A DNA stretch of 64,000 nt from IMG/VR virus record IMGVR_UViG_3300044984_001421, positions 1 through 64,000 of that record; one strand, 5' to 3'. The notes below the pieces were generated by a model. It searched no databases. It worked only from the letters and a program-made list of their open reading frames with translations, and was not told the DNA's origin. Source of the DNA: a virus. The translations under genes and the position numbers were made by a program. This document shows positions 2,248 to 57,400 of this stretch, in pieces. Numbering within the stretch: position 1 is the stretch's first letter; every line of letters begins with the position of its first letter.

Positions 2248-2771
2248 GCACAGCACTGACAACACAAAGTGGTGGCGCGCTGGCGATCAGCGACCAGGAA
2301 CTGATGGGAGTTTTGAGATACGACAGGGATACAGGGATTATTTATTGGGCAATTCGTAGCGGAAGATCAAAGCCAGGAAACGTCGCCGGAACAGTGAAGA
2401 CTGACGGATATATCCAGATTAGAGCGTGCGGCGGACAGCATTACGCGCACCGCATCGCATGGCTGTTTGAGCATGGTAAATGGCCTGACGGTCACATCGA
2501 TCATATCGATGGCGATCCGACGAACAACAGAATATCAAATCTCCGTGATGTTTCCATTGGGATGAACATGGAAAACCAGCGGCACGCTCATGTCAGCAAC
2601 AAAAGCAGTGGGTTGCTTGGCGTCAGTTTTGATAAGCAAACAGGACGCTGGATGGCAAAAATCAGCGTCTCAAACAAGACAAAGAACCTTGGCAGATTTT
2701 CAGACCAGAACAAGGCCCATGAGGCATACGTCGCGGCTAAACGCCAACTACACCCTGGAGCAACGATATGA
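2244..2771 (+). CDS. HNH homing endonuclease with AP2-like DNA-binding domain
   Basis: A 175-residue protein. Residues 30-115 carry an HNH nuclease pattern: DTGIIYW, AHRIAWLFEHGKWPD, then HIDHIDGDPTNNRISNLR, holding the catalytic His and Asn residues. The C-terminus (SSGLLGVSFDKQTGRWMAKI onward) resembles the AP2-type DNA-binding module of phage homing endonucleases. The first 24 residues, MSTALTTQSGGALAISDQEL, look like the N-terminus of Bet/RecT proteins rather than of HNH enzymes. It overlaps bet by ATGA. It probably spreads by cutting bet genes that lack it. Confidence 0.85.
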   Translation: MSTALTTQSGGALAISDQELMGVLRYDRDTGIIYWAIRSGRSKPGNVAGTVKTDGYIQIRACGGQHYAHRIAWLFEHGKWPDGHIDHIDGDPTNNRISNLRDVSIGMNMENQRHAHVSNKSSGLLGVSFDKQTGRWMAKISVSNKTKNLGRFSDQNKAHEAYVAAKRQLHPGATI

Positions 2772-3649
2772 CAAACGAAGTGGCAAGACAAGACAGCGTG
2801 TGCGGATTTCCGTCGCTGGCAATGAGTGAGCGCGAGTTGATGACAGTGCTAGAAGGGAGCCTTTATCCAGGCGCACAGCCAGAATCAATAAAGATGGCAA
2901 TTGGATACTGCAAAGCGGCTGGATTGGACATCATGCAAAAGCCAATTCACATTGTCCCGGTCTGGGACAGCAAAGCCGGCCGCATGCGCGACGTAATCAT
3001 GCCGGGTGTCGGCCTGTACCGGACGCAGGCCGCGCGAAGTGAGAATTATGCCGGCGTCTCTGAGCCGGAATACGGTCCTGACGTTACCGAGAACATTGGC
3101 GGCGTCATGATCACCTACCCAGTGTGGTGCAAGGTCATTGTCCGCCGCGCAATGAAGAACGGCAACATTGCCGAGTTTGCGGCGACAGAACGCTGGAAGG
3201 AAAACTACGCAACGAAGGGGGGGAAAGAAAAGTCCATCGCGCCTAACGCGATGTGGACAAAGCGCCCATACGGCCAGATTTCCAAGTGCGCTGAAGCCCA
3301 GGCGCTGCGCAAAGCATTCCCTGAAGTCGGGTCCGCACCAACAGCCGATGAGATGGAAGACAAGAGCTACGGCGAAGGCGCTATCGACGGAACGGTTGTC
3401 CCCGAGGAAAAACGCGCCGAACTTACACAGTATGACGCGCACCAGTTCGATGTGAACTTTCCGAAGTGGCAGGACACGATCAAATCCGGCAAGAAAACTG
3501 CCGAGCAGTTGATCAGCATGATCGGAACCAAAGGCTGGCTGACAGAGGCGCAGAAAGAGGCGATTCGGGACTGCGAGATTGCGGATGCAGATGAAGCCGA
3601 TCCGTTCGTCGCTGCGATGGAAGCAGAAGAAGCCAGGGAGGCCGCATGA
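2768..3649 (+). CDS. bet: Phage recombinase Bet (RecT/Red-beta family single-strand annealing protein)
   Basis: A 293-residue Red-beta-like annealing protein. Diagnostic stretches are LMTVLEGSLYPGAQPESIKM, YCKAAGLDIMQKPIHIVPVW and QISKCAEAQALRKAFPE. With the following exonuclease it forms a two-component recombination system acting on resected double-strand ends. The C-terminal third (after residue 205) is variable and acidic, as is usual for the family. The start at 2768 overlaps the HNH stop. The first 15 residues, MTNEVARQDSVCGFP, do not look like a native Bet N-terminus, while the real-looking one is fused to the upstream HNH gene. Confidence 0.9.
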   Translation: MTNEVARQDSVCGFPSLAMSERELMTVLEGSLYPGAQPESIKMAIGYCKAAGLDIMQKPIHIVPVWDSKAGRMRDVIMPGVGLYRTQAARSENYAGVSEPEYGPDVTENIGGVMITYPVWCKVIVRRAMKNGNIAEFAATERWKENYATKGGKEKSIAPNAMWTKRPYGQISKCAEAQALRKAFPEVGSAPTADEMEDKSYGEGAIDGTVVPEEKRAELTQYDAHQFDVNFPKWQDTIKSGKKTAEQLISMIGTKGWLTEAQKEAIRDCEIADADEADPFVAAMEAEEAREAA

Positions 3650-5439
3650 AAACGCTCGACCTTATCCAAGGCAGCCAAGAATGGCTAAACGCCAGAATGC
3701 AGTACCTGACCGCCAGCGAAGCACCTGCCATGCTCGGGTTGAGCAAATACAAGACTCGGTCTGAACTGCTGCGCGAAAAATCAACCGGAATCGTGCCTGA
3801 AGTGGATGCGGCAACACAGCGCCGGTTCGACGCCGGACATGCAGCAGAAGCAGCGACCAGGGTGTGGGCGGAAAAACTGATCGGTGAAGACTTGTACCCG
3901 ACCACAGGCACGACGGAAATCGAAGGCTTGCCGTTACTCGCCAGCTTCGACGGCGTCAACCTGGACGAGTCGATCTGTTGGGAAAATAAGTTGTGGAATG
4001 CGGAGTTTGCCAAGCAAGTGGCAGACCGCATTGTGCCGGATACGCACTGGCCGCAACTTGAACAGCAGATGCTGGTCAGCGGCGCGCAGAAAGTGCTGTT
4101 TACCGTCAGCGATGGCGACACACAGATTATTCACACTTGGTACGAGTCGGTACCGGAACGCAGGGTGCGCCTGATCGCAGGCTGGAAGGCGTTCAAAGCG
4201 GACATGGAAAACTTCCAGTACGTCGAGGTGATTCCTGCAGCAGTAGCAACGCCTGAAGCTGGGCTGCCATCCGTATTTATCCGCGTCGAAGGCAGCATTG
4301 CTCTGGTGGATAACCTGCCAGCATTCGGCGAAATCCTGACCGATTACATCGCACGCATGAAAGTGATCACGGAAAAGGATAAAAAAACAGACCAGGACTA
4401 CGCTGATCTTGAGCAAGCCGTCAGGAACATGAAGCGCGCAGAGGAAGAACTCGATGCGGCGGAAAACAGCGCGCTTGGACAAACCGAAAGCATCGACTCA
4501 ATGCGCAAGACGGTTGCGATGTATCGGGCCATGGCGCGGGATAACCGGCTGTTGATCGACAAGCTGGTCAAGGCCGAGAAGGAAAGCCGCAAAGCAGAGA
4601 TCATCGTCAACGCCAGGAAAGCTATCGAGGAACACATCCAGAAAATGAACGTGCGAATCGGCGGCAACTGGATGCCAGCAGCGAGCGCGGCACCATTCGC
4701 CGAAGCCGTCAAGGGACTAAAAACCCTGGACAGCATGCGTGAAAAAGTCGGAACAGCACTGCGCGACATGATGTTCGAAGCAAGTCTGATGGCAGACCGG
4801 ATCGAGTCGAACCGCAAGAGCCTGACCGGCGAGGCGCACGACTGGATGTTCCTGTTCCCAGATTTCCCAGCGGTCTGCCAGAAGCCAGTCGAAGATTTCG
4901 CCGCCATGTTGTCGATGCGGATCACGAATCACAAAGCCGCCGAAGATAAAAGACTCGAAGCCGAGCGCGAGAAGATCCGCGCAGAGGAACGCGCCAAGGC
5001 GGAAGCGGAAGCGCAAGCGAAAGCAAAAGCCGAAAAGTCCGCTCTGGATGCGGAGGAAATGAAGAAGCGCGCCGAATTCGAACACCTCCAACGTGAAGAA
5101 GCGAAGGCATTCCAGCGGCAGGCGGCAGAGCAGGCACAAGGACGCGCGGCCATGGCCGAAGCCGAGCAGTTGATCGCCAGCGCGAAATCAGCGACAGCAA
5201 CGCCACCAATCGAGCAGTCGGCAGAGACAGCAGAGAGCGAGAACCTGCTCAAACTCGGCCAGATTGGTGAGCGACTTGGATTTTCCGTGACGGCAGAATT
5301 AATCGCCTCACTCGGCATCTTGCCAAAAGCACAAGACCGGTCAGCGAAGTTGTACTCGCAGGCCGATTTCATCCGCGTCTGCGACGCCTTGATTGCCAGG
5401 GTCACAGCAGCACGCAACGCGCAGTACCAACCTCAGTAA
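3646..5439 (+). CDS. YqaJ-type viral exonuclease with long coiled-coil C-terminal extension
   Basis: A 597-residue protein. The N-terminal 200 residues are a YqaJ/lambda-Exo-type nuclease: GSQEWLNARMQYLTASEAPA, then catalytic D102 and E113-N-K115 (the D...ExK metal site). Residues 220-400 hold a second helical domain, and 415-520 a very charged coiled coil rich in AEAERAK. YqaJ exonucleases are usually 200-330 residues, so this is a fusion, probably to a DUF1351-like module. It resects double-stranded ends and feeds Bet, with which it overlaps by 4 bases. Confidence 0.85.
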   Translation: MKTLDLIQGSQEWLNARMQYLTASEAPAMLGLSKYKTRSELLREKSTGIVPEVDAATQRRFDAGHAAEAATRVWAEKLIGEDLYPTTGTTEIEGLPLLASFDGVNLDESICWENKLWNAEFAKQVADRIVPDTHWPQLEQQMLVSGAQKVLFTVSDGDTQIIHTWYESVPERRVRLIAGWKAFKADMENFQYVEVIPAAVATPEAGLPSVFIRVEGSIALVDNLPAFGEILTDYIARMKVITEKDKKTDQDYADLEQAVRNMKRAEEELDAAENSALGQTESIDSMRKTVAMYRAMARDNRLLIDKLVKAEKESRKAEIIVNARKAIEEHIQKMNVRIGGNWMPAASAAPFAEAVKGLKTLDSMREKVGTALRDMMFEASLMADRIESNRKSLTGEAHDWMFLFPDFPAVCQKPVEDFAAMLSMRITNHKAAEDKRLEAEREKIRAEERAKAEAEAQAKAKAEKSALDAEEMKKRAEFEHLQREEAKAFQRQAAEQAQGRAAMAEAEQLIASAKSATATPPIEQSAETAESENLLKLGQIGERLGFSVTAELIASLGILPKAQDRSAKLYSQADFIRVCDALIARVTAARNAQYQPQ

Positions 5440-7828: not shown

Positions 7829-8215
7829 ATGAGATCAATCGACATCATCGAAGCCGCAGAATTCCTTGGCCTGCACTGCAACACCCTGCAGGCCAGGGCG
7901 AAAGCCGGCGAAATCCCTGGCGTCAAGATCGGGAAAGAGTGGAGATTCATCGACGTTGATCTTGTCGAATACATGCGCTCACAATACCTGTCCAACAAAC
8001 AGGACGGGCAAGAGTCGTGTCGATCTACAAGCGAGGCGAAATCTGGTGGTACTCGATCACGCTCAAAGGTAGACCAAGGGCTAGAGGAAGCACTGGCGAG
8101 AGTGATCGGGAAAAGGCGCAGCGCAAGCACGACGAGATCAAAGCAGAACTCTGGCAAGCCAAGCCTGTCCGTGGTGCAGAACGCACATGGAACGACGCAT
8201 GCATTGCCTGGCTGA
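7829..8215 (+). CDS. Excisionase-like HTH protein
   Basis: A 128-residue frame. Residues 1-55 form a MerR/excisionase-type helix-turn-helix (SIDIIEAAEFLGLHCNTLQA, then AGEIPGVKIGKEWRF). The remaining residues overlap the integrase gene in another frame, are low in complexity and may be dispensable. By homology and position it is the directionality factor for prophage excision, binding between the arm sites near att. Confidence 0.75.
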   Translation: MRSIDIIEAAEFLGLHCNTLQARAKAGEIPGVKIGKEWRFIDVDLVEYMRSQYLSNKQDGQESCRSTSEAKSGGTRSRSKVDQGLEEALARVIGKRRSASTTRSKQNSGKPSLSVVQNAHGTTHALPG

Positions 8216-9003
8216 ACGCTGGGGAGCGCGGAGAATCTGACGGATACACCATCAGGTCGCTCGGGTACAAGAACCGGGCGCTCTCGCAATGCACGCAGGC
8301 AAGCTTCGAAGAAGTCCTTGATGGACTGTCGCCAGCGACGTGGAACCGCAAGCGGAACACGATCATGGCGATCCTGCACATGGCAGGCGTCAACATCAAG
8401 ATATCCACCCGGAAAGTCGCAAAACAGCGCATCCGATACCTGACCGCCGAGGAATGGGAGCGTCTCGACGCGGAATTGCCGTCACACCTTCAGGCCATGG
8501 CTCGATTTGCAATATCGACCGGGCTTCGCCAGAGCAACGTCACACAACTCAAATGGGATCAGGTCGACATGGACCGGCGCGTCGCCTGGATACACCCGGA
8601 CGAAGCCAAAGCCGAGAAGGCAATCGGCGTGCCGCTTTCTGACATGGCGATGGAAGTCCTGCAAGGACAGAAAATCCTGAGAGACGCGGAAATCGCTCTC
8701 GCAGAAACAGAAGGACGGAAGTTCGACCCGTCCTACGTCTTCACCTACAAGCGCAAGCCCATCGCCAAGATCAAGACCGCATGGACGAAGGCGCTCGCCA
8801 GAGCAAAGATCGAGAACTTCCGGTGGCACGATCTGAGGCACACCTGGGCAAGCTGGCATGTCATGTCTGGAACACCGCTGGAAGTGCTGAAGCAACTCGG
8901 CGGTTGGAGCGACTACTCCATGGTCCTTCGTTATGCACACCTGGCTCCAGACCACCTGGCCGGGTTCGCCGGCAACGCAAAGCCGTACCAGCGCGCAGCG
9001 TAG
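8017..9003 (+). CDS. int: Tyrosine-recombinase integrase
   Basis: A 328-residue phage integrase. Catalytic residues are visible: R171 (STGLRQSN), H271-D-L-R274 (WHDLRHTW), W297 in the usual second-His position (GGWSDYSM) and nucleophile Y306 (LRYAH). It starts with GTG at 8017 inside the excisionase frame. The tRNA-derived att core and repeated TGTGAC arm sites lie directly downstream. It catalyses integration at, and excision from, a host tRNA-Val gene. Confidence 0.9.
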   Translation: MSIYKRGEIWWYSITLKGRPRARGSTGESDREKAQRKHDEIKAELWQAKPVRGAERTWNDACIAWLNAGERGESDGYTIRSLGYKNRALSQCTQASFEEVLDGLSPATWNRKRNTIMAILHMAGVNIKISTRKVAKQRIRYLTAEEWERLDAELPSHLQAMARFAISTGLRQSNVTQLKWDQVDMDRRVAWIHPDEAKAEKAIGVPLSDMAMEVLQGQKILRDAEIALAETEGRKFDPSYVFTYKRKPIAKIKTAWTKALARAKIENFRWHDLRHTWASWHVMSGTPLEVLKQLGGWSDYSMVLRYAHLAPDHLAGFAGNAKPYQRAA

Positions 9004-9918: not shown

Positions 9919-10602
9919 TCAATCAATTTCTTCCAGAGTTAGCAAACCATGCAGAGATCCGCCAAGATCTTCGGATGCGCCACCATTGATATACCAGTTG
10001 TCCACAGAATTACGACGCCCAACACGAACCGTGTAGGTTGTCGCTGCTACAGACGCAGGCGAATCAACAAACTCAAGGCAGAAAGGAACCTCGTAAGTAT
10101 AAAAACTACGCATCGATCCTACGCAAACAGAGCCCCTGAAAATAGCGACAATCACGCCTGTAGATGCGTTTCCAGAGGCAGTCAGAGTGGCGCGGACCCG
10201 CACTTTTCTAGAGGATGAAGATGGCGTTATCGACAGGCTGGCTACCTGGGTGCCTTCGCTTGACAACGGAACAGTATCGTCATCCGGGATGAACGTCGTC
10301 CCTGTAGCGGATGGGATGTCGACATGCTGAATCTGGTAAATGCCAGATTGAGATGCTGCCAGCGCAGCATCCAACTCAGCAGCCGTCGTGTAGGTCGGAT
10401 GCGGGTCAACAGCGGCAACGTGGGCTGCCATGCTCGTCGCAGATTCGAGCGCGTCGACTCTCGACTTCAAATAAACCGTCCGATTCGCCAGGTTTTTAAG
10501 CGGAGCATTTGCGACGCCAGCTTCACCACCGATAGCTGGGTCCGTTGTCTCGAGCCGGTAGACTCCGGCATCCCATTGGTTCAGTTCGCCTAAATTCGCC
10601 AT
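9919..10602 (-). CDS. Tail fibre protein
   Basis: A 227-residue fibre protein. Its N-terminus (MANLGELNQWDAGVYRLETT, then GVANAPLKNLANRTVYLKSR) is the baseplate-attachment type seen in phage fibres, and HVAAVDPHPTYTTAAELDAA is a common fibre shaft signature. The C-terminal half is beta-rich and probably binds the receptor. It shares the N-terminal layout with the protein at 13334-13825. Confidence 0.75.
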   Translation of the reverse strand: MANLGELNQWDAGVYRLETTDPAIGGEAGVANAPLKNLANRTVYLKSRVDALESATSMAAHVAAVDPHPTYTTAAELDAALAASQSGIYQIQHVDIPSATGTTFIPDDDTVPLSSEGTQVASLSITPSSSSRKVRVRATLTASGNASTGVIVAIFRGSVCVGSMRSFYTYEVPFCLEFVDSPASVAATTYTVRVGRRNSVDNWYINGGASEDLGGSLHGLLTLEEID

Positions 10603-10603
10603 A

Positions 10604-11047
10604 TTAGAACTCGATTCTCCAGATGCCGGTCAGGGCGATGTCGGATGTTTTTTGCAACACAGATGAGCGCGTCTTGCGAGCCATGAGCACACCTGCCGTG
10701 GTCAGCAATCCAAGCTCAAGGATGTTGGTGCCGTTGGCTTCAGCCGTTGTCAGCGAGAACGCGAAGCTGACCGACCGGTCGCTTGGGTAGGTGACGGCAT
10801 CGATCGACTTCAAGAATGCGCTGGTCAGAGATTGGTTGCCGGCCGCAGGAACAGACCCTGACGTGCCAAACCCGATCTTGCTGATGCTGCGATTGTTGAC
10901 GTCGCCGCCCCAGAGCCTGGCGTTCTGGCCTTTCGACAGGTCAACGATGATGTTATCGCCGCTCCATGTCTCGATGAGACGACCACGCTCGTAGACGTTT
11001 AGCGTCAGAAAGCCGCGCTGAGTGGGTACTCGATCAGTGAGTTGCAT
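10604..11047 (-). CDS. Putative tail protein
   Basis: A 147-residue beta-rich protein (GFLTLNVYERGRLIETWSGD, then GTNILELGLLTTAGVLMARK), located in the fibre cluster, so probably a fibre or baseplate accessory. The ATG lies exactly 13 bases after a GTCGTGACG motif and has no Shine-Dalgarno sequence, suggesting its own promoter. Confidence 0.6.
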   Translation of the reverse strand: MQLTDRVPTQRGFLTLNVYERGRLIETWSGDNIIVDLSKGQNARLWGGDVNNRSISKIGFGTSGSVPAAGNQSLTSAFLKSIDAVTYPSDRSVSFAFSLTTAEANGTNILELGLLTTAGVLMARKTRSSVLQKTSDIALTGIWRIEF

Positions 11048-11172: not shown

Positions 11173-11727
11173 TTAAGCACCGGCAGTAGGTCCGCCACCA
11201 ATTCCAACTGGGTATGTCCGCTCTGTCCACGTCAACCCGTCTGTAGAAGTTGCGTATTCAGTATCCGCTGATGCAAGCATAAACATCTCTGCGCCAGCAC
11301 TGTATGTCAGATTATTAACGATCATCACAGGGGCAGTGCTTTGGGTCCAGCTTGTTCCACCGTTATAGGAAACCAATGAGATTCCGTTGGTGCCATCAAC
11401 AACGACGATCTTGCCGCCCCCATACGCCACTACCGGGTTTTCGATAGAGACTGGAAAAGCCGTTTCCGCCCAAGCAATCCCGTCAGCAGACTTATAAAAG
11501 TACGCCCGCGACCCAGTCAAAAATGCGTAGAAATTAGTGCCGTCAGACAACATTGTCGCGTTACAAAAAATAAAACTAAGTGCTGGTGTCAGTGGATACT
11601 GAAGTGTGTAGCTAATGCCATCTGTCGAAAGATGTGAATTCATTCCAGATGCTGAACTGCCAGACATGTAGCAAATAAGCGATCCGACACTGGCTGAGTT
11701 TCTAGATACGGATATGAATATGGGCAT
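11173..11727 (-). CDS. Beta-propeller-type tail protein, C-terminal part of a split gene
   Basis: A 184-residue protein with repeated sialidase/BNR-like strands (YATSTDGLTWTERTYP, AYFYKSADGIAWAETAFP), typical of beta-propeller receptor-binding tail proteins. It is in the same reading frame as the upstream 110-residue frame and separated from it by one TAG codon (11731-11733) and one sense codon. The ATG at 11727 has no clear binding site. It may be translated by readthrough, by coupling, or be inactive. Confidence 0.55.
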   Translation of the reverse strand: MPIFISVSRNSASVGSLICYMSGSSASGMNSHLSTDGISYTLQYPLTPALSFIFCNATMLSDGTNFYAFLTGSRAYFYKSADGIAWAETAFPVSIENPVVAYGGGKIVVVDGTNGISLVSYNGGTSWTQSTAPVMIVNNLTYSAGAEMFMLASADTEYATSTDGLTWTERTYPVGIGGGPTAGA

Positions 11728-11730
11728 GCG

Positions 11731-12063
11731 CTAGCTCCAATCAGTTCCATTAGAAGAGCTGCGCTCCCCTGCGATATATAGACTAAGCGAGGCGTTGTAG
11801 TGCAAACCAACCCCCATTGTGCCTGTTAGACCTTTCGTAATCGGGCTGCCTACAATCCATGTCACCGCATCGGCAGAAGTCGCTGTGTAAAAGTATGACG
11901 ATGACCCATCAGCGGCAAGTATGCAGAACTCTGACCCGTTATGTATCGCGTTGTCCCAAGTATATCCAGCCTCTAGAGTTGGAACAGTGACCTCGCTAAA
12001 CGTAACACCACCATCAAGCGACAGCCCTGCTGATGTTAGTGCAGGGTATGTCGTTGGAAGCAC
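11731..12063 (-). CDS. Beta-propeller-type tail protein, N-terminal part (ends in in-frame TAG)
   Basis: A 110-residue frame with the same BNR-like pattern (TSADAVTWIVGSP; SSSNGTDWS at the end). No good start or binding site is visible; GTG at 12063 is the nearest. It overlaps the end of the gene at 12014-12559 in another frame, suggesting that the three pieces (11173-12559) once formed one adhesin broken by a frameshift and an amber codon. Confidence 0.45.
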   Translation of the reverse strand: MLPTTYPALTSAGLSLDGGVTFSEVTVPTLEAGYTWDNAIHNGSEFCILAADGSSSYFYTATSADAVTWIVGSPITKGLTGTMGVGLHYNASLSLYIAGERSSSNGTDWS

Positions 12064-12559
12064 TAGAATAGTGCTGTAGTGGGCAACTGAGCGTTACCGC
12101 AGTGATGTGTAGGTAATCCCAGGTTGCCATAATGCCAAGAACGAAGATATTAATCTTCAACTTGCCTGTAGTCACATACGGGAATGTTGCATCAAGCGTA
12201 AAAGTGGTTTCTATGCCGTCCCAAGACGATGTGCTGCTTTCGAGAATGTTATCTTCGTCGTCACGTATGGATATACTAAGCGCGGCCATACCCCCACCAA
12301 AACTCGGATTCACTGCTTCAACCACAATCTGAAGCGATACCGTTCCTTCACTTTGGCATTGTGGTAAAGCAGTGGTGATTTCAATCTCCGGGCTGCCCGC
12401 ATACGGCGCAACGAAATGGTCAGTATCCCAAGTCACACCTGGACCAGCTTCCCATACTGTGTCGTTGAATGCGTATTCGCCGGAACAGCCGTAGCACGCA
12501 GAAGCCGCCGAGCATTCCTCGATCACGTTGATCTTGTCGGTCCAGAAGCACTCGGCCAT
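12014..12559 (-). CDS. Tail adhesin with duplicated Cys-containing domain, copy A
   Basis: A 181-residue protein. Residues 22-159 (CYGCSGEYAFNDTVW to WDYLHITAVTLSC) form a beta-sandwich-like domain that recurs in the protein encoded at 12657-13337. After this domain the frame ends in a 22-residue tail unlike copy B, consistent with a frameshift out of the following propeller sequence. Probably a receptor-binding tail component. Confidence 0.6.
   Translation of the reverse strand: MAECFWTDKINVIEECSAASACYGCSGEYAFNDTVWEAGPGVTWDTDHFVAPYAGSPEIEITTALPQCQSEGTVSLQIVVEAVNPSFGGGMAALSISIRDDEDNILESSTSSWDGIETTFTLDATFPYVTTGKLKINIFVLGIMATWDYLHITAVTLSCPLQHYSSASNDIPCTNISRAVA
12082..12496 (-). repeat. Duplicated adhesin domain, copy A
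   Basis: About 415 bp nearly collinear with 12866-13280; for example the sequences around 12088 and 12871 share CTGAGCGTTACCGCAGTGAT. The encoded domains share most residues but differ in scattered surface positions, indicating an old tandem duplication followed by divergence. Confidence 0.85.
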
Positions 12560-12562
12560 ATC

Positions 12563-12700
12563 TTAGCTGTCCGTTAACTCGACTTCGTAACCAAGCTCAA
12601 ACCCTTTGGTCTGGCTGGAAGTAAGCGCATTCGCAAAATCACGACCGAGACAGTCACTAGTGCCCACCAGGGCCGCATCTGACAACTTGATATGCAACAT
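12563..12700 (-). CDS. Possible 45-residue protein between adhesin copies
   Basis: The frame from ATG 12700 (MLHIKLSDAALVGTSDCLGR) ends two bases before the start region of copy A and overlaps the end of copy B in another frame. A GGTGAGG element lies immediately before the ATG, closer than usual. It fills the gap between the genes and has reasonable composition, but could be non-coding. Confidence 0.4.
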   Translation of the reverse strand: MLHIKLSDAALVGTSDCLGRDFANALTSSQTKGFELGYEVELTDS

Positions 12701-13337
12701 CCTCACCGGGAATCGGTTCATATTTCACGCATTGATTCGTCAACGAATCCCAAACCCCGCCGAATGCGGCGCAATTTGTAGCCTCATTCCCTATCATATC
12801 TACGTAACATTCTGATGTGCAGCCTTCTTCTGTGTTGCCAAAGCACCCTGACAGGTCGAGTTCGACACAACTGAGCGTTACCGCAGTGATGTGCAGGTAA
12901 TCCCAGGTTGCCATAAAACCAAGAATAGAAACCACGACTTTCAACTTACCTGTAGTCCCACAGGGGAAATTGGTATCAAAGGTGAACGTGGTTTCCGTGC
13001 CGTCCCAAATTAACTCTTCACTTTCAAAAACATTATCCGACTCATCACGAACGCTGATTGTTAAGTTAGCAGCACCGCCACCCAGACTTGGATTCACCGC
13101 TTCAACAACAATCTGAAGCGATACCGTTCCTTCACTTTGGCACTGCGGCGAATCCGTAATAATTTCAATCTGCGGGCCGCTCGCATACGGCGCAACGAAA
13201 TGATCCGTGTCCCAAGTCACGCCAGTGCCCGCTCCCCATACTGTGTCGTTGAATGCGTATTCGCCAGAACAGCCGTAACAGGCAGTAACACCACCACCAC
13301 CCCCAAACAAAATAAACCCTGCGCCGGGGACTATCAT
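12657..13337 (-). CDS. Tail adhesin with duplicated Cys-containing domain, copy B
   Basis: A 226-residue protein starting at ATG 13337, which overlaps the previous stop (ATGA). A Gly-rich hinge (ILFGGGGGVTA) precedes the duplicated domain at residues 20-157, followed by a Cys-rich tail (CFGNTEEGCTSECYVDM). Cysteine-rich tips are common on phage receptor-binding proteins. A longer frame to 13406 overlaps the upstream gene and is not preferred. Confidence 0.65.
   Translation of the reverse strand: MIVPGAGFILFGGGGGVTACYGCSGEYAFNDTVWGAGTGVTWDTDHFVAPYASGPQIEIITDSPQCQSEGTVSLQIVVEAVNPSLGGGAANLTISVRDESDNVFESEELIWDGTETTFTFDTNFPCGTTGKLKVVVSILGFMATWDYLHITAVTLSCVELDLSGCFGNTEEGCTSECYVDMIGNEATNCAAFGGVWDSLTNQCVKYEPIPGEDVAYQVVRCGPGGH
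12866..13280 (-). repeat. Duplicated adhesin domain, copy B
   Basis: Partner of the segment at 12082-12496. Both encode the CYGCSGEYAFNDTVW start and the WDYLHITAVTLSC end, with the centre diverged. Confidence 0.85.
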
Positions 13338-13825
13338 GCCAAGTCGCCACCCATCGAACAAATCGCCCTCGTAGCGCCAGGCTCGACGATATAGCTCACC
13401 ACGCACTTCGCACCAAGCGTTGCGCTGATCGTGGGTGTCGTTGCGCCGAAGTACCAGAAAGCATTAAAAGCCAAGGTCTTCGCCGCACTGGCATGTTGCG
13501 TAAAATGAATCACGCCGCTCTGCCCGGCAACCGCATTCGTCGGCGCGGAAAGAGTCGTGTTCTCCGTCAGCGTATGGTTGAAGTTGTTCGACAGATCAAG
13601 GTCAACCGCAATGCTGGCGGACGTGCTGGTCAGCGGGTCGAACGCACCGCGTTGGGCTTTGTTGTATGTGTTGTTGCGCGCAGCGAACTCGTTTAAATAC
13701 TCCGTGCGGTTCAGCAAAGCCTGCGCTTGCTCGTTCATCACGCCACCCGCACCACCCAGGGCAAGCGTCGTTGTCTCAAGCTGGGCAACGCTGTCCATGC
13801 CAGGTATCGCGGTCAAATTCGCCAT
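13334..13825 (-). CDS. Tail fibre protein (second attachment-type N-terminus)
   Basis: A 163-residue protein. Its N-terminus (MANLTAIPGMDSVAQLETTT, then ALLNRTEYLNEFAARN) parallels that of the fibre at 9919-10602, so the two probably bind the same baseplate position. The C-terminal part (SGVIHFTQHASAAKTLAFNA) is beta-rich like phage fibre shafts. It leads the fibre cluster after the baseplate genes and overlaps copy B of the adhesin by 4 bases. Confidence 0.7.
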   Translation of the reverse strand: MANLTAIPGMDSVAQLETTTLALGGAGGVMNEQAQALLNRTEYLNEFAARNNTYNKAQRGAFDPLTSTSASIAVDLDLSNNFNHTLTENTTLSAPTNAVAGQSGVIHFTQHASAAKTLAFNAFWYFGATTPTISATLGAKCVVSYIVEPGATRAICSMGGDLA

Positions 13826-35348: not shown

Positions 35349-38300
35349 TTAGAACATGGATGCCTGCGGCTGATCAGTCTTTGGCTTGATGAAAGACGCA
35401 ATCCCTGTGTCGTCCAGCCCATCCATCGGGTCGGTCATAAACTCGCGCAGCATGTGCTTCTTCGCCAGGCGGTCGCGCGCAGCCTTCTCGGATTTGTGAT
35501 TGGCAACAACATCCAGCAATTCGACGTTGTTCTTCTGTCCGAGCCGGTGGATTCGCGCATTGCGCTGACCGTGGACCATGGCGGTATTCGGCGAGTCGTG
35601 CTGGATAAGCCAATTTCCGCGCTGGAGGTTGAGTCCAACGGCTGCCGCGTCAGACGCGACCATGATGTCCGCCGATGCTTCTCCGCTCTCCGGGTTGAAC
35701 TGCTTGCGCTTGGCATCCTTGTCCTGCGCCGAGTCAGATCCGGTGATGGTGACGACGCGATGGCCGGCAGCCTTCAGGCGCTTCTCGATTTCAGCAACGG
35801 CAGCGCGACTGTGCGCGAACACAACGCCGGGCTTGCCTTTGCGCGCGCCGACCAGTTCCATGACCTTGTCGATCTTGGCGTTATCCGGGTGAGTGTTGAT
35901 GATGCGCGATGCGGCGGATTCCTTGATGATGCCAAGCGACTCCTGGATGTTCTTGGCGATCGCTTCGTGCTGTTCTTCCGGTACCCCGTCGAAGGAGTCC
36001 GGGCTGATCGCCTTGCAGGATGCGACATCGACCTTGCCGGCCGTTTTTGCCGCCTTGGCTTTCGACATCGACTTGTCGAGCGCAGCAAGTGCTGACTTCT
36101 GGCCGGCAGACAGTTCGACTTGATGGACTTCATGCTGCGCGTCGACGTCTGGCGCGATAGTGTTTGAGATTACGTGGCGGGCCATTTCGCGCTTTAGCGC
36201 AGCCTTTGCAGCAATGGTGTCGCCGCCGTACTTGCGCATGAATGCTGCGCGGTCTCCGTAACGCTCGCGGTCCATTTTCGCCATGACGTCGTGAATTTCA
36301 GAACTGTCGTTCTTGATCGGATCGCCAGATCCGTAGACGTGGTATTCGGCATTATCAGAGACGGCATCGATCACGTTCGACCGAGCAGAATTCTCCTTTC
36401 CGGCACGATTTACGATCTGGTGCGCTTCATCGACCATGGTAGCGTCGAAGTTCATGCCTTCCTTGTCCATCACTTCCTTGGCCCAGGTCTTGCGCTCGGC
36501 CGGCGTCATGGCAGACAGCTTGGCGTTCATTTCTGACTCGGTGATGCCGGCGTGCTTGGCACCCAGGTGCTGCATGTCGGCGCGGAACGATTCGTGCGTC
36601 ATCACCGCGAAGTGATGGTCCGGATTCTTGTAGGCGGCAATCCGCTCTGCCTGCGACGCGCCCGGCTGACAGTGCCAGTTGAACTTGCCAGGCTCCAGGT
36701 AGCGCAGAGCCTCGCCGCCAAATTGCCCCTGGACGACAGAAGGCACCAGCATCAGCGCCCGCTTGATCTTGCCGGTTTCGTGCAAGTGCGAGAACGCGCC
36801 CAGGTAGATGCCGGTCTTTCCGGAGCCGGCACCGTAGGACAGAACCGTCCGCTTGTTGGCTTCGATGTGCTTGATGGCACGCTGCTGCGGCGTGTACTTG
36901 TCGTTCATCGACGGCTGCCACAGCTTCGTCGGATGCCCTGGTTTGAAGTTCTTCCCGACCACCGACATCATGCCGGCGATCTGCTGCTCGGCGGCATGGC
37001 CCAGCGTGTGGCGTTCGTCGGCCCCCAGCGGAACCTTTTTCCCGGCGTCAGGAAGATGGTCTTCTTCGGTCGAGAAGAAACCCATCTGCGACTGTTCGAA
37101 TGCCGCCTTGGCTTCCTGCTGCGCCTCGATCTTGTCTGCAACAGATCCTGATGAGTACTTGCCACCGGCACGCTCGCGCAGAGAATCCACCAGCGCGCGA
37201 TGCGATTCCTCACGCTTGGCACGTGCGGCAGGATCGACTGCATCCAGGTGGTTCAAGTTGCCAGCGATAACCGTCTTGCCGACCTTGAGCGGGTTCTTCT
37301 TGTTGAGCGTGTTGTGGACTTCTGCAAACTTGCTGACAACATGGGAGCGGACCAAGTCCTGCACCGACTTGATGGCATTCTCCGGGCTGCCCATGATGCC
37401 GACGTACTTGTTCCAGTCCAGGCCGGAAGAACCAGCAACCTGCGACAGTTCGTCACGCTTGGCATTCCAGGCTGACCACTCCGGCGTCGTGGACGTCTCG
37501 CCGAACATATCGACGGATTCCTTCTCCGGCTCGTTGGCAAGGTGCGCCTCATGTTCGTCGCGCGCCGCCTTGCCGGCTTCGTCCACTTTCGCCAGATTCT
37601 CGTTGAACCACTTCCGGAGTCCAGTGCGCTCCTGCGCAGACAGGTCGCCGATGGGCTTGAACGCTGCGACACCTTCCGGCGTTTCAGACAGCGCACGATG
37701 CAAAGCATCGACGGATTTCTGGTTGATCTCGATCTTCTGCCGATGCAGCGGAGAGCGGTCGCCGCCCATCTTCCCAACATAGTCGTCGGCCATTTTCTCG
37801 AACTCGCCAGCCAGGCTCTCGACCGGGCGCATCTTGCCGTCTTCACTCTTGAGCGGAGCAACAGAGTCGAGCGCAGCACGGTAGGCTTCAGGGTCGCCAG
37901 ACTTGGCATGGAAGTCGCCAGACTGGATATCGGCCAGGATGTCTGCGGGTGAATCGCCGTCTGCCGCGCGCCCGCCGATGTAGTCGCGGAGCGATTGCGC
38001 CAGGTCAGCGCCAGGCTTGAACGGTTGCGCCAGGCGTTCAGCGACGCCAGGCTCTGCCTTCATCGCAAGATCCGGCCGGTTGGCAAAGCCCTTCGGCAGC
38101 CAGCCGTCCTCGTCATGCTTTCCGGAGATGATGTCCATGTTCCGGCTGATCTGCTTCATGCCTTCGACATCAACAGGCGCAGCAAGTCGGTCCAGACCTT
38201 CACCGGTAATCGTGGTGACAAGGTTCCCGTTCACTGATTCCAGCTTGTAGTCGCCAGACTTCAGACCGAGCGCGTGCAGTTTGGTAATCGCCGACTTCGG

Positions 38301-40496
38301 GTCCACCTTTCCGAGCGACACCTCGACATGGTCCTTCGCGCCTTCGCGTAGCGCCATCACCAGCGACGCGCCGGCCTGCAGTTGACCGGTTGCCTGCCCG
38401 AGTACGCGCTTGGCCTGCATGACGGCTTCCCGGCGCTTGTGATTGGCTTCTTGGGCGGTTGCCAGGTCGTATCCGGTTTTGCCTTCCGGCATTTCGATTT
38501 CACCAGCGGCGTCGGCGAGTTCGCGCGCCTGCTTGACGGCATTCTGCTGGATGTCGTTCTGTGACTGGACGTGGTAATTCTCGGCACCTTGGCGGATGCG
38601 GTCCAGGTCGCCGGCTTCGTAATCCTTGTGGATGCGGCGGGCAATGATCTGCGACGCGGCACTGATGCCGAGAACGTCAACCACCGAACGGTCGATCATC
38701 GAGTCACCGGCTGCAGCCTGGGCGAAGGCGTTCAGCGCGTTGAATGCGCCGGCTCCGACGTGACCGCCAAGCGATTCCTCGCCGCCCATCTTGTCGATCT
38801 CTGACAGCAGGCCGACAGCGCCGATGGTCTTGATGTCCTGCTCCATCTGTTTGCGCGCGGCGTCTTCAACATCGGCATCCGACACTTCGAGGATGTGCGC
38901 CTTGGACTCAACCACGGAAGCGCCGTCCAGTTCCATGCTGGCATGACGCGCGGCCATTTCGAGCATCTTCAACTTCTTCTGCGCCTTCACCAGCGCGGCA
39001 GCTTTCTTGGCGTCGTCCAGCACCTTCGGCTGCGGCTTGACCGTTTCCGGATTGGCGAGCTTGAAGTCTTCTACCTCTTTGGCGATGCCGGCAGCCAGGT
39101 CTTTCTTCTCGGCAGCCTTCGACGCCTGCGCAGCCAGTTCATCCGGCGACTTTGCATCCGCGCCGTGGACATTGGTCAGTTCCGCCTCGACAGATTCCGG
39201 AGTCAAGCCTTTGTCTGCCGCGCGCTTGCCGAAGTCTTGCGAGAAGCCCAGGCCGGGCGTCTTTTCCGGCATCGGGTCGAGGTCGGCAACGGAAATCTGG
39301 TCCGGGCTGGGGTCGGTCAGCGGGATCTCTCCCAGGCCGGATGCCGCGAGAGCTTCGTGGTCTTCGACCAGATTCTTGCGGTTCATTTCAACGGCAGCCT
39401 TGGCGCGATGGAAGATGTCCTTGTCGTGTTCCTTGCGGGCTTTCGCCTGGGCTTCTTCGGACAAGCCGGCGTGCGCTTCTTCATCGAACGCCAGCGACTT
39501 GTCGTCCCAGCCCATAACGTCGGCGACCGTCTTCACGAATTCCTCGCGCTGCTTCTTGACCGACTCCTTCAGCGCGCCCTTCTCGGCTTGCTTCTGGTTG
39601 TGTATGCCGGCTGCCTTGTCGGCTTCGATTTGCTTCTTCTTGGCTTCCTGCCGAGCCTGCCCGCGCTGCTTGATGGAGTCCTTGTAGGACTCGCCGGTCT
39701 TCACCGAGCGCAGCTTAAGATGGTTCAGCGCGCCGCCCGCGCCGCCGATGACGCGCATCGAGCCGTCTTCGTGCGGCATAACCAGAATCGGGCTGCCCTT
39801 CGCGCCTGGGTGCGAATGAACAGTGACCCAATGTGCCCCGGCAGGGATGGGACCGTGCTCGGATTTCAGCATGTGCTGACCGAAGTCTAGAGAATGATCA
39901 AAGTCAACTCGGGCAACTCGGGTAACCGGGTCAATTACCCGATTTGCCCGGACTTCCGCCTTCACCATCCGCCCGTCAGCCGCCAGCACCTTCTGCTTGA
40001 ATTCCTCCACCGGCATAGCCGTGACCGGACCAAGGAAACGAGGGTCGTCGTAGTGAAGCAGGTAGGCGCGCTCGGCTTCTTCCTGGCTGGCAAATTGGAG
40101 CATCGCCTTGTCCTCGTCATACCGATCCCATGCGCCTGCCTTGCGCTGGTGGATGATGTAGACCATCGGCGCGGTTTCATCCGGCCCGAGGTAGCAATCC
40201 ACATGGTCACCGTCGACACCCAGGCTGGACAACACATAGCCGTAGGGAAACACCATCCGCGTCCCCCAGGCGTGACCGTCCCGATCAACGCCACGCCGGA
40301 ACGAGCCGGCCTCGTTTTCAATCGAGATGGTCAGGCCATTCCAGGCGACCTTGCGCTTGCCGTAGTTCCCGGCCTTGATCTGCGCCGGGGTCGGCTCATG
40401 CGGGAAACGGTAGACGGCGTTCTGAGTCTCAGCCTTCGCCAGCGGCGTGCCGACGAAAGCTGCAATGTGACTACGGAGTGCGGATAGAGAGTCCAT
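35349..40496 (-). CDS. Giant polyvalent protein: InPase-like domain and SF2 helicase
   Basis: A 1715-residue protein. After an N-terminal SALRSHIAAFVG segment, residues 40-150 resemble the InPase domain of phage polyvalent proteins (GTRMVFPYGYVLSSLGVDGD, HVDCYLGPDE). The centre is a long helical, Ala/Lys/Glu-rich region. The C-terminal 520 residues are an SF2/Snf2-type helicase: Walker A SYGAGSGKTG near 1223, VDEAHQ near 1355 and QRNARIHRLGQ near 1645. Polyvalent proteins are thought to enter the cell with phage DNA and protect it. The ATG at 40496 lies 13 bases after a promoter motif. Confidence 0.8.
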   Translation of the reverse strand: MDSLSALRSHIAAFVGTPLAKAETQNAVYRFPHEPTPAQIKAGNYGKRKVAWNGLTISIENEAGSFRRGVDRDGHAWGTRMVFPYGYVLSSLGVDGDHVDCYLGPDETAPMVYIIHQRKAGAWDRYDEDKAMLQFASQEEAERAYLLHYDDPRFLGPVTAMPVEEFKQKVLAADGRMVKAEVRANRVIDPVTRVARVDFDHSLDFGQHMLKSEHGPIPAGAHWVTVHSHPGAKGSPILVMPHEDGSMRVIGGAGGALNHLKLRSVKTGESYKDSIKQRGQARQEAKKKQIEADKAAGIHNQKQAEKGALKESVKKQREEFVKTVADVMGWDDKSLAFDEEAHAGLSEEAQAKARKEHDKDIFHRAKAAVEMNRKNLVEDHEALAASGLGEIPLTDPSPDQISVADLDPMPEKTPGLGFSQDFGKRAADKGLTPESVEAELTNVHGADAKSPDELAAQASKAAEKKDLAAGIAKEVEDFKLANPETVKPQPKVLDDAKKAAALVKAQKKLKMLEMAARHASMELDGASVVESKAHILEVSDADVEDAARKQMEQDIKTIGAVGLLSEIDKMGGEESLGGHVGAGAFNALNAFAQAAAGDSMIDRSVVDVLGISAASQIIARRIHKDYEAGDLDRIRQGAENYHVQSQNDIQQNAVKQARELADAAGEIEMPEGKTGYDLATAQEANHKRREAVMQAKRVLGQATGQLQAGASLVMALREGAKDHVEVSLGKVDPKSAITKLHALGLKSGDYKLESVNGNLVTTITGEGLDRLAAPVDVEGMKQISRNMDIISGKHDEDGWLPKGFANRPDLAMKAEPGVAERLAQPFKPGADLAQSLRDYIGGRAADGDSPADILADIQSGDFHAKSGDPEAYRAALDSVAPLKSEDGKMRPVESLAGEFEKMADDYVGKMGGDRSPLHRQKIEINQKSVDALHRALSETPEGVAAFKPIGDLSAQERTGLRKWFNENLAKVDEAGKAARDEHEAHLANEPEKESVDMFGETSTTPEWSAWNAKRDELSQVAGSSGLDWNKYVGIMGSPENAIKSVQDLVRSHVVSKFAEVHNTLNKKNPLKVGKTVIAGNLNHLDAVDPAARAKREESHRALVDSLRERAGGKYSSGSVADKIEAQQEAKAAFEQSQMGFFSTEEDHLPDAGKKVPLGADERHTLGHAAEQQIAGMMSVVGKNFKPGHPTKLWQPSMNDKYTPQQRAIKHIEANKRTVLSYGAGSGKTGIYLGAFSHLHETGKIKRALMLVPSVVQGQFGGEALRYLEPGKFNWHCQPGASQAERIAAYKNPDHHFAVMTHESFRADMQHLGAKHAGITESEMNAKLSAMTPAERKTWAKEVMDKEGMNFDATMVDEAHQIVNRAGKENSARSNVIDAVSDNAEYHVYGSGDPIKNDSSEIHDVMAKMDRERYGDRAAFMRKYGGDTIAAKAALKREMARHVISNTIAPDVDAQHEVHQVELSAGQKSALAALDKSMSKAKAAKTAGKVDVASCKAISPDSFDGVPEEQHEAIAKNIQESLGIIKESAASRIINTHPDNAKIDKVMELVGARKGKPGVVFAHSRAAVAEIEKRLKAAGHRVVTITGSDSAQDKDAKRKQFNPESGEASADIMVASDAAAVGLNLQRGNWLIQHDSPNTAMVHGQRNARIHRLGQKNNVELLDVVANHKSEKAARDRLAKKHMLREFMTDPMDGLDDTGIASFIKPKTDQPQASMF

Positions 40497-40509
40497 CAGC
40501 ACATCGTGG

Positions 40510-53926: not shown

Positions 53927-54417
53927 GCCGGCATCCTTTCTTCTGCTCCCATCAGAACTTTGACCGCGTACTGCAGCGACGGCTTGAGCATCACACCAAA
54001 CAGCATGTCGTCGCCATCGGCCAGCTTCCACTTCTCGATAACCAGCGCAGCCAGCCAGTCGAACAGGACCGCGACAGGATCATCGGCGAACTCATGCCGG
54101 TGAGCATGCCAATGCGGTCCCAGGTCAATCTTCAGCTTGTTGCCCAGCGTGAAGTCGTTATAGCCATTGATGATGCTGTAACCAGGGTCACGCCCGGAGA
54201 AGATGCCGGCCAGACGGGTGATCTCAGAGCCAAGTTCAGCATGCGCAGAATCTCCCGGAACCTCTCCGGAAGACGCTGCCATGGCAATCGCTTCAACCTT
54301 GGCGGCGAATCCACCAACCAAGCCGGCGACTACATCAGGATTGCCAAGACTGGTCGCGCTTGACGGGTCCGAGAAGGCTCCTGGCGATACACGATAACGG
54401 TCTCTTTCTTGTCCCAT
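53923..54417 (-). CDS. Hypothetical protein in the polyvalent-gene operon
   Basis: A 164-residue protein (FAAKVEAIAMAASSGEVPGD; DPVAVLFDWLAALVIEKWKL), mainly helical. ATG 54417 follows a strong AAGGAGTAATTCGGA and lies 88 bases inside the end of the upstream giant gene. No family is recognised. Confidence 0.65.
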   Translation of the reverse strand: MGQERDRYRVSPGAFSDPSSATSLGNPDVVAGLVGGFAAKVEAIAMAASSGEVPGDSAHAELGSEITRLAGIFSGRDPGYSIINGYNDFTLGNKLKIDLGPHWHAHRHEFADDPVAVLFDWLAALVIEKWKLADGDDMLFGVMLKPSLQYAVKVLMGAEERMPA

Positions 54418-57400
54418 TCCGAATTACTCCTTAACGATTTCGCCAGCGTCTGGCCTTTAAGTTGAGCCACGAAGCCAGTGTCTGGCGGCAGCATGATAAC
54501 GTCGATGAATACGCCTTGCGGGTGGTTGTGACCGCCAGGCTGAACATCGACTACCAGATACCGCTGGCCCGGCAACGTTGTCAGTTCGCCCTCACTGCCG
54601 AGAGAGCCTGTGCCATACGTCGGCGTTGCTTTGCACCCTGCCGCGCAGCGAATCCGCATCTTGATCTGCTTGCCGTCCCCGTTCGTAAAGTGCGGCGAGT
54701 CGCCCCAGCTTTCGTGGAACGAGGTACACATCGAGTCCGTGTTCTGCAGTATAGCGCCCGGCTTGGTGGCGAGAAGCTGCTTGGTCATCGACTTGCCAGC
54801 CGTGTCGTCGTCCATCCATCGCCACATCTGCGTGCCTTCAGGAAGATCCACAGCGTCGTCGTAGATGCCAGCCGTCACCTTGTTGATCGGCGTCGAGTCG
54901 TATGACGACTTGCCATGCGACCACAGATGGTTTGCAGCACCAGAACCCTGCACACTTGAGATGTAGGTCTTGGTCGTGCTCCTGACCTTTTGATAGGCAG
55001 CCTTGAGCATTCCAGCGAACGATGTTCCTGACTTCTGCCAGAACCACTTCGTCCTTTTCAACAACGCGACAGCATCGCCTTCATCGATCTGGCACAACTT
55101 CATGAAGTACCCGAGACGGTGCTCCTGCGGGATTGTCGTCACGTTCTGGCCTGGCGCGAAAGAACCGACCGCATCGGCAATCTCGCTGACCAGACCGAAG
55201 CTGCCAAGCGACGGCATCTCCAATGTTTCGACAGGAGGATAGCCAATCGACTGCAGCGTCTGGACCAGCGACGCCCACTGCTGCTGGATGTGGTTGGAAG
55301 GATGCTCTGTAATCGGCTTCTTGCCGATGGACTGGCCGGTCTCCTTGTCCACCGCGTCGTAGTGGTAATCCTTCAACGCCTTCAGGTTGCCTTGCATGGC
55401 GAAGGCTGCCAGAGCCGCGCTGTCGGCGCTGTTTTTGTCGTTGACGTGCTGCTTCGAAGATACCGGCTTTCCGCCGTTCAGCGTGTTGAAGTCAAGCGGC
55501 GGCTTGATGTCGGCCGGGTCGACGGTCAGCTTTGTCTCATCGACCGGAGGCGTATCCCACTGGTCGACAATTCCCATCTGCTTCAGGACGTCAGCGCGCC
55601 TGGCAATCAGCTTCTTGGCAAGCGCGGCCTTTTCCGCATCCGTGCCAGGCCCGGCAATTTTGCAGAGTTCTTCGATTTGCGACGGCTTCAACTTGTTCAA
55701 CTGCTTGCCACCCCAGGCAATCGATGCGTCCGTAGCGCCGGCAAAGACCGCCGCAGCCTTGGCGTTCTTGCCGTAGTCCTTCATGGTCTTCAACTCGGCA
55801 ACCGTGTCGCCGAAGTCCGCGCCCTTCTTGCCGCCCATGGCACGGTAGTCGAGCGAACCGCCCACGTCGATGCGGACAGCGCCGCCTGAACTGTTGAGCA
55901 GCAGGTTGTCGTTCGCCATGCCGACGACATCCCAGTTGCCGATCCAGGCGTCGATGGCGAATGCCTGGTGTGCGCCAGCTGCGCTGGCAAGATTCTCAGC
56001 GCTGCCCTTCTTCATCCCATCAACCCACTTCGAGGCGATACCCAGCTTGCCGTCCTTTTCGACCAGCTTCAGCGTCGGAACATCGACGCCAAGCATCTGG
56101 TAGAACTTGGCAGCCAGGAATTCGCTGCGCACCATTTCGGCGTCGGCCGGGAACTTGCAATACCACTCCTGCCCGCCTTTGTCCTTGAACTTTCCGCCAG
56201 GGTTTGAACCCAACTGCGGACCAGTCTGCGGCCAGGAATCCATTACCGAAACGTGGTCGCCAAGCTTTGACTTGGCAATCGAGATCGGCGCTGCCGGTTC
56301 AACTTTGTGCCAATGGCCGTTTTGGAACACCAGCATGCCATCCGCGCCCTGCTTGGTATCGCCGTCCTTCGGGCTGGCAGATTGAGCGGCAGTAGAACCC
56401 AGTGCAGCGGGGTCAACGCCTTCTGCTTCCGGATCGAACTTGCCAAGCGCAGCGGCATGCATTTGCTGGCAGAACTTGTAGAACTGTTGACGACGAACAA
56501 GCGTCGAGATCGATGTACATTTTCCTGTTTTGAATCCAGTGACGTTTTGCTTCGCCGAAACAGAGCCGTCGTTGTGGAAAGTGACGTACTGCTTCAACCC
56601 TGTAACTCCGCCATTCAATACTGCGTTCTTTATCGCAGTCGAGATGTTGACGTAGATTTTTGAGTTTTGATGCGGATCAAGCGTCTCGTAATCCGGTACC
56701 GGAACTGCCGCTATCTGCTGCGCCTTGGTCAGTTTTTTCTTCTTCTTGAAGACGATGACAATCGGCGGAATCTCGGTGGGTATTGGCTCGAAGCCGGAAG
56801 AGCCGACATAGCTGTAACCGTTTGCGCCCTTCATTCCGACCAGCTTGATCGCAGCCTTGACCGCCGCGTCGTTGCTGGCATGGACTTCGTCGCCGCTGTG
56901 GCCTTTCTGCCCGATCTTGCCGTAGGTCTTGGTCAAAACAGTGCCATGGACCTCGACCTTGTAGAACTTGTTGTGCCCTGGTTTTTTGTTTTCCATGTGC
57001 GCAATCCACTTGTACCCGGTGGCAGGCTGCGCAGCAGGAGCCGCAGGAGCTGCAGCCACACCCTTGATCTTGTCCAGCATTCCGGAATCCGGCATGTGAA
57101 CGCCGAACATCTTGTCCAGCGTGTTGCGGACGTCGTTTTTGTCGAACGCGGACCATGGGCCAGAACCGCTACCATCGGCATCGGATGTGCCAATTTGGTA
57201 CTCTTTCAGGTCATTGTCCCAGCCCACATAGATGGTTGATGTGGCTGTGTGCTCAAGCAGGATCACGTTGTTCCCGCTGAACCCTTCGTCGTTCATCGAC
57301 ACTTGCCAGGTGCCGGATGGCGCAGGAGCATCGGACGCTGCCGGCTTGGCCGATTCCTGCTCGGCCTTTTCCTTCAGAAACTCCTGCTGTCCATTGGTCA

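What the first reader, a model, noticed from the sequence alone, without database searches (positions are those of the whole stretch)
12082..13280. Tandem duplication and divergence of a tail adhesin domain
Segments 12082-12496 and 12866-13280 encode two versions of the same Cys-containing domain, with conserved ends and a diverged centre. Duplication of receptor-binding parts can widen or switch host range.
Basis: seen in the sequence. Interest (0 to 1): 0.6.

Follow-up and report, generated by a model that had tools for sequence, protein, structure and literature searches.

The report
Twin tail-fibre adhesin domains in phage
A tailed bacterial virus carries two diverged copies of one probable sugar-binding domain in neighbouring small genes behind its tail-fibre gene, and a relative carries a single gene that looks like the two copies recombined into one; this is a fresh example of a familiar way phages remodel host-recognition proteins.

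Summary
On the minus strand, 12084-12501 and 12868-13285 are homologous over their whole length: 138 codons, 76% identical amino acids, ends conserved, middle diverged. They lie in two separate small genes just downstream of a short tail-fibre gene in an 85-kb contractile-tail phage related to Bordetella phage PHB04. The two-copy layout recurs in three other contigs.

It is not a simple tandem duplication. The copies sit in unrelated flanks, with a unique 366-bp spacer between them. They are more diverged at silent sites (dS 0.82) than orthologous genes of the nearest relative (0.44). That relative (L006) has one fused gene: copy-B-like in its leader and first ~37 codons, copy-C-like afterwards (permutation P = 2e-4), then in frame with the next gene. 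L006 therefore looks like a recombinant between the two copies, or the window a recombination-made insertion. The phage encodes a RecT/YqaJ-type recombination pair; no reverse transcriptase or serine invertase was found.

The domain has no sequence family. Its predicted fold (pLDDT 72) is a jelly-roll most like carbohydrate-binding modules and phage tail proteins. dN/dS is 0.20 overall and the centre is saturated at silent sites too, so positive selection is not shown. A host-range effect is plausible but untested.

The parts
13334..13825 (-). Short tail-fibre gene (163 aa, P0005): fibre N-terminus plus a mobile end domain, directly upstream of the adhesin genes
   Evidence: PHROGs tail fiber protein phrog_3100 E 4.6e-6 and phrog_4209 E 5e-6; DNA similarity to unrelated phage contigs L031-L034 ends at 13356, just before the stop codon
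12657..13337 (-). Gene B (226 aa, P0001): glycine-rich leader, domain copy B, Cys-rich tail; start overlaps the fibre gene stop (ATGA)
   Evidence: ORF and translation; sequence
12868..13285 (-). Domain copy B (about 138 codons)
   Evidence: Repeat and alignments; AF2 model
12502..12867 (-). Unique spacer between the copies (Cys-rich end of gene B, small ORF, start of gene C); occurs once in the 85-kb record
12563..12700 (-). Small ORF of 45 aa between B and C, overlapping the end of B; coding status uncertain
12014..12559 (-). Gene C (181 aa, P0002): Cys-containing leader, domain copy C, short out-of-frame tail
12084..12501 (-). Domain copy C, orthologous over most of its length to the single domain of L006
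11731..12063 (-). ORF D (110 aa, P0003) with Asp-box-like repeats; fused in frame to the domain in L006, one base out of frame here (GTG start, weak initiation context)
   Evidence: weak BNR match E 0.18
11173..11727 (-). ORF E (184 aa, P0004) with four S-x-D/G-G-x-x-W-like repeats, probable beta-propeller-like tail part
10604..11047 (-). 147-aa tail-associated gene F (P0007, phrog_5417), syntenic in phage Touem01 directly after the baseplate genes
9919..10602 (-). Second tail-fibre gene (P0006), N-terminus similar to tail fibres of PHB04 and Touem01
2768..5439 (+). RecT-family annealase (2768-3649) and YqaJ-type exonuclease (3646-5439): candidate machinery for recombination between the copies

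Best explanation
The region is a fast-changing host-recognition cassette of a contractile-tail phage. Two small proteins, B and C, encoded right behind a short tail-fibre gene, each present one copy of a jelly-roll, probably sugar-binding, domain. The copies descend from one domain, but they were brought together (or have long been kept together) in different gene contexts and diverged mainly in codons 69-104. Recombination at the near-identical end and middle blocks, plausibly by the phage's own RecT/YqaJ system, has moved the region between a two-gene state (window) and a single fused gene (L006). Shown: homology, gene layout, age relative to orthologues, mosaic single-copy relative, recombinase genes. 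Inferred: sugar binding, position at the fibre tip, use of RecT/YqaJ, effect on host range.
For: Homology over the full 138 codons. The locus lies between baseplate genes and a second fibre gene. L006 has one ORF, leader + domain + D, in the same place. Informative sites switch from B-like (9:2) to C-like (56:12) at codons 37-40, permutation P = 2e-4. dS B-C 0.82 (95% CI 0.53-1.29) against flanking orthologues 0.44 (0.39-0.51), and C-L006 0.24 against B-L006 0.93 after codon 38. The AF2 domain model (pLDDT 72, pTM 0.71) matches CBM4, CBM6, CBM16, CBM22, CBM35 and phage tail proteins at E 1e-4 to 5e-6. RecT and YqaJ are present. The fibre-end module with different downstream genes in L031-L034 marks a swap point. 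Two independent contigs span the whole region and a third covers both copies.
Against: Foldseek TM-scores are modest (mostly 0.35-0.63, high rmsd), and jelly-rolls match promiscuously, including non-lectin viral capsids. There is no Pfam match and no convincing PHROGs match to B or C. Only one independent relative (L006) exists, so the direction of change and the breakpoint rest on a single comparison. Expression of C and D is uncertain because of the one-base offset between them. The domain could be a structural tail decoration rather than the receptor binder.
Confidence: 0.6

Rival explanations
1. In-place tandem duplication in the window's lineage followed by divergence for a new receptor.
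For: Direct repeats in adjacent genes at the same locus; precedents for fibre-domain duplications that change infectivity (PMC6365445; Tetart 1996 as cited in PMC9603124).
Against: A simple tandem duplication would copy leader or trailer sequence, but the flanks of B and C are unrelated and the spacer is unique. B-C silent divergence is no smaller than that between the two phages. dN/dS is 0.20 overall and the centre is also saturated at silent sites.
Confidence: 0.15
2. Copy B, with the Cys-rich trailer and spacer, was imported from another phage by homologous recombination within the domain, next to the resident copy C; L006 keeps the older single-gene layout and its B-like first codons come from ancestry or gene conversion.
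For: Unique spacer; C is orthologous to L006 while B is an outgroup after codon 38; the in-frame domain-D fusion in L006 and the one-base offset in the window look like window-side decay; a swap point lies at the neighbouring fibre end.
Against: No donor carrying copy B elsewhere was found; the leader of L006 matches gene B, so B's head is resident.
Confidence: 0.2
3. The region is decaying: C and D are fragments of a former fused gene inactivated by the one-base shift, and only B is expressed.
For: C and D are out of frame here but one ORF in L006; D starts at GTG without a clear ribosome site.
Against: C has an intact 181-aa frame with its own start in a tightly packed operon; C-L006 dN/dS is 0.29 and D is 0.22, below neutral; the same bases are present in two further contigs.
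Confidence: 0.15
4. A programmed diversification system (diversity-generating retroelement or invertible fibre segment) makes the copies differ.
For: Conserved ends with a diverged centre is the superficial look of a template/variable repeat pair.
Against: No reverse transcriptase (PF00078) or serine recombinase (PF00239) in the 85-kb record; differences are not confined to one template base and include many silent changes; the copies are direct, not inverted.
Confidence: 0.02

Closest known systems
T4 gp37 adhesin domain duplications that expand host range (Tetart et al. 1996, cited in PMC9603124 and PMC8573959)
   Same: Duplicated small domain of a tail-fibre adhesin, adjacent copies
   Different: T4 duplications lie inside one gene (own knowledge); here the copies are old, in two genes, with a unique spacer; no host-range data
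Enterococcus phage EfV12-phi1 tandem tail-fibre duplications (PMC6365445)
   Same: Direct repeats in a myovirus fibre locus near a carbohydrate-binding part
   Different: There 1.8-kb in-frame duplications arose during coevolution and did not diverge
T2-type gp38 tip adhesins with variable segments between conserved motifs (from own knowledge; Trojet et al. 2011 as cited in PMC9603124)
   Same: Small separate protein encoded right after the fibre gene; conserved blocks around variable ones allow recombination
   Different: No family match to B or C was found; predicted jelly-roll, not the gp38 glycine-rich type
Jelly-roll carbohydrate-binding modules (CBM4, CBM16, CBM22, CBM35) and CBM-bearing phage tail proteins
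   Same: Predicted beta-sandwich fold
   Different: No detectable sequence similarity; invariant Cys residues in this domain
Bordetella phage vB_BbrM_PHB04 and Pseudomonas phage Touem01 tail loci
   Same: Same baseplate gene order and similar fibre N-terminus
   Different: Neither has the B/C domain; Touem01 lacks the whole first-fibre cassette between baseplate and gene F

Membership tests
Phage tail-fibre/receptor-binding locus | Linked to baseplate and tail-fibre genes | tested here: met
Phage tail-fibre/receptor-binding locus | Protein is in the virion and binds the host surface | not testable with these tools
   needs virion proteomics and binding assays
Carbohydrate-binding module (jelly-roll type) | Jelly-roll beta-sandwich fold | tested here: inconclusive
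   AF2 pLDDT 72; Foldseek E about 1e-5 but TM-score mostly 0.35-0.63
Carbohydrate-binding module (jelly-roll type) | Sequence match to a CBM family | tested here: not met
   No Pfam hit; no meaningful PDB sequence hit
Carbohydrate-binding module (jelly-roll type) | Binds a carbohydrate | not testable with these tools
   needs glycan array or pull-down
Simple tandem duplication | Copies share flanking sequence at a duplication junction | tested here: not met
   Similarity ends abruptly on both sides; unique spacer
Diversity-generating retroelement | Reverse transcriptase gene | tested here: not met
   PF00078 absent from the record; the record may be incomplete
Invertible tail-fibre segment (Gin/Cin type) | Serine invertase and inverted fibre copies | tested here: not met
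   PF00239 absent; copies are direct

The most novel reading that the evidence does not exclude
The paired domains act as a built-in recombination switch. Annealing between copies B and C by the phage's RecT-type system turns two separate adhesin proteins into one fused adhesin-propeller protein (as seen in L006), so a lineage alternates between two host-recognition architectures without a dedicated invertase or retroelement.
Probability: 0.07. Interest if true: 0.5.

Novelty: new member of a known kind. Interest (0 to 1): 0.27.

Why it matters
Phage host range is remodelled by mosaic exchange in tail-fibre loci. Here a natural two-copy state and its apparent one-copy recombinant are both caught, in a domain with no described family, with recombinase genes in the same phage. 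This gives a concrete, testable case of how old paralogous adhesin domains feed recombination. If the domains bind sugars, B and C are a ready pair for asking whether the variable stretch (codons 69-104) sets specificity.

Tried and rejected
(1) Diversity-generating retroelement: no reverse transcriptase in the 85-kb record, differences not base-specific. (2) Invertible fibre segment: no serine recombinase, copies direct. (3) Recent duplication: rejected by dS 0.82 against orthologue dS 0.44. (4) Positive selection as the cause of the diverged centre: not supported, because silent sites are saturated there too (about 18 of 23 sites) and dN/dS is 0.20 overall. (5) Assembly artefact: two other contigs span the whole layout and a third covers both copies; the C/D one-base offset recurs in both contigs that reach it. 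(6) Relatives in cellular genomes or isolated phages: none found. (7) Sequence-family assignment of B and C: none in Pfam or PHROGs; a weak phrog_18660 hit (E 0.026) on the B tail was not followed. (8) The full-length AF2 model of B was poor (pLDDT 57), so mainly the domain model was relied on.

Full report
Observation. The two segments are real and slightly longer than reported: 12084-12501 and 12868-13285, direct repeats 784 bp apart. They code on the minus strand. Both encode a 138-residue domain that begins CYGCS and ends ITAVTLSC, with 76% amino-acid identity and no gap between them. Nucleotide identity is about 79% over the whole length. Similarity ends abruptly on both sides. Codons 1-16, 47-66 and 122-138 are nearly identical, while codons 69-104 carry most replacement changes.

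Setting. The window is part of an 85,367-bp viral metagenome record. Reading down the minus strand: baseplate genes (16637-13835, with a J-like protein 48% identical to that of Bordetella phage PHB04), a short tail-fibre gene (13825-13334), gene B (13337-12657, ATGA overlap), a 45-aa small ORF (12700-12563), gene C (12559-12014), ORF D (12063-11731), ORF E (11727-11173), gene F (11047-10604), then a second tail-fibre gene (10602-9919). In Pseudomonas phage Touem01 gene F follows the baseplate genes directly, so the first fibre with B-E is an extra cassette here. Three further contigs carry the region at 99.98-100% identity: two span it fully and one ends at 12088 after covering both copies.

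Not a plain tandem duplication. A simple duplication would repeat leader or trailer sequence. Instead B has a glycine-rich leader and a Cys-rich trailer, C has a different Cys-containing leader, and the 366 bp between the copies occur once in the record.

The single-copy relative. Contig L006 (IMGVR_UViG_3300002026_000531), with adjacent genes about 83-88% identical, has a single 270-aa ORF: the B leader, one domain, and D fused in frame. Along the domain, informative sites are B-like up to codon 37 (9 B: 2 C) and C-like from codon 40 (12 B: 56 C); permutation P = 2e-4. After codon 38, dS to L006 is 0.24 for C but 0.93 for B; before it, 0.64 and 0.25 (wide intervals). So the L006 gene has the structure expected of a crossover between B and C, or equally the window has that of an insertion by crossover. 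With one independent relative the direction cannot be fixed. In the window C and D are one base out of frame (TGCCCACTACAGCACTATT against TGTCCACAACCGCTTATT in L006), and the window bases recur in both contigs that reach the site.

Age and selection. dS between B and C is 0.82 (95% CI 0.53-1.29), above the 0.44 (0.39-0.51) of flanking orthologues between window and L006. The split of the copies is therefore at least as old as the split of the phages, or one copy was imported. dN/dS is 0.20 between B and C. The diverged centre is saturated at silent sites as well, so it does not by itself show positive selection; imported or simply old sequence flanked by blocks kept similar by recombination or constraint explains it as well.

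Function. B and C match no Pfam family and have no convincing PHROGs match, and match no solved sequence meaningfully. The AF2 model of the domain (three sequences, pLDDT 72, pTM 0.71) is an all-beta sandwich. Its Foldseek matches are dominated by carbohydrate-binding modules (CBM4, 16, 35 and others) and, in the viral library, by CenC-like, receptor-binding and tail proteins; an earlier weaker full-length model gave the same kind of hits, including phage tail fibres. TM-scores are modest and some hits are unrelated jelly-roll capsids, so the fold class is likely but sugar binding is inferred. Cys1, Cys4, Cys47 and Cys138 are invariant in the three copies, possibly a metal site or disulfides (inference).

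Mechanism. The phage has a RecT annealase and a YqaJ exonuclease (2768-5439). Such pairs promote recombination between imperfectly matched sequences (own knowledge). The near-identical blocks within the domain would serve. The neighbouring fibre gene also shows a swap point: its end domain is shared with otherwise unrelated contigs L031-L034, where similarity stops at 13356 and different genes follow in the contigs read (L032 and L034). No reverse transcriptase or serine recombinase was found in the record.

Verdict. Host-range consequences are untested. Duplicated fibre domains with effects on infectivity are known from T4 (Tetart 1996, cited in PMC9603124) and EfV12-phi1 (PMC6365445), so this is a new member of a known kind.

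Noticed in passing
window 13334-13825; L031-L034: The end domain of the short tail-fibre gene is shared at 75-77% DNA identity with contigs that otherwise have no DNA match to the window; similarity stops just before the stop codon and different genes follow.
   Followed up: partly
window 13825-13334 and 10602-9919: The phage carries two tail-fibre genes with related N-termini; the first, with genes B-E, is an extra cassette compared with phage Touem01.
   Followed up: partly
window 12000-12063: One-base offset puts gene C and ORF D in different frames, whereas they are a single ORF in L006.
   Followed up: yes
window 11173-12063: ORFs D and E contain Asp-box-like repeats (S-x-D-G-x-x-W) split over two ORFs in both the window and L006, as if one propeller were made from two proteins.
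   Followed up: no
window 35349-40502: 1717-aa protein with a DNA helicase region and an N-terminal part matching DarB-like antirestriction and other virion-associated PHROGs.
   Followed up: no
window 54330-60041: 1903-aa protein whose only Pfam match is a WGR domain, a domain known from PARP-like proteins.
   Followed up: no
window 8017-9003: Integrase-type gene (phrog_1, E 2e-54), suggesting a temperate phage.
   Followed up: no
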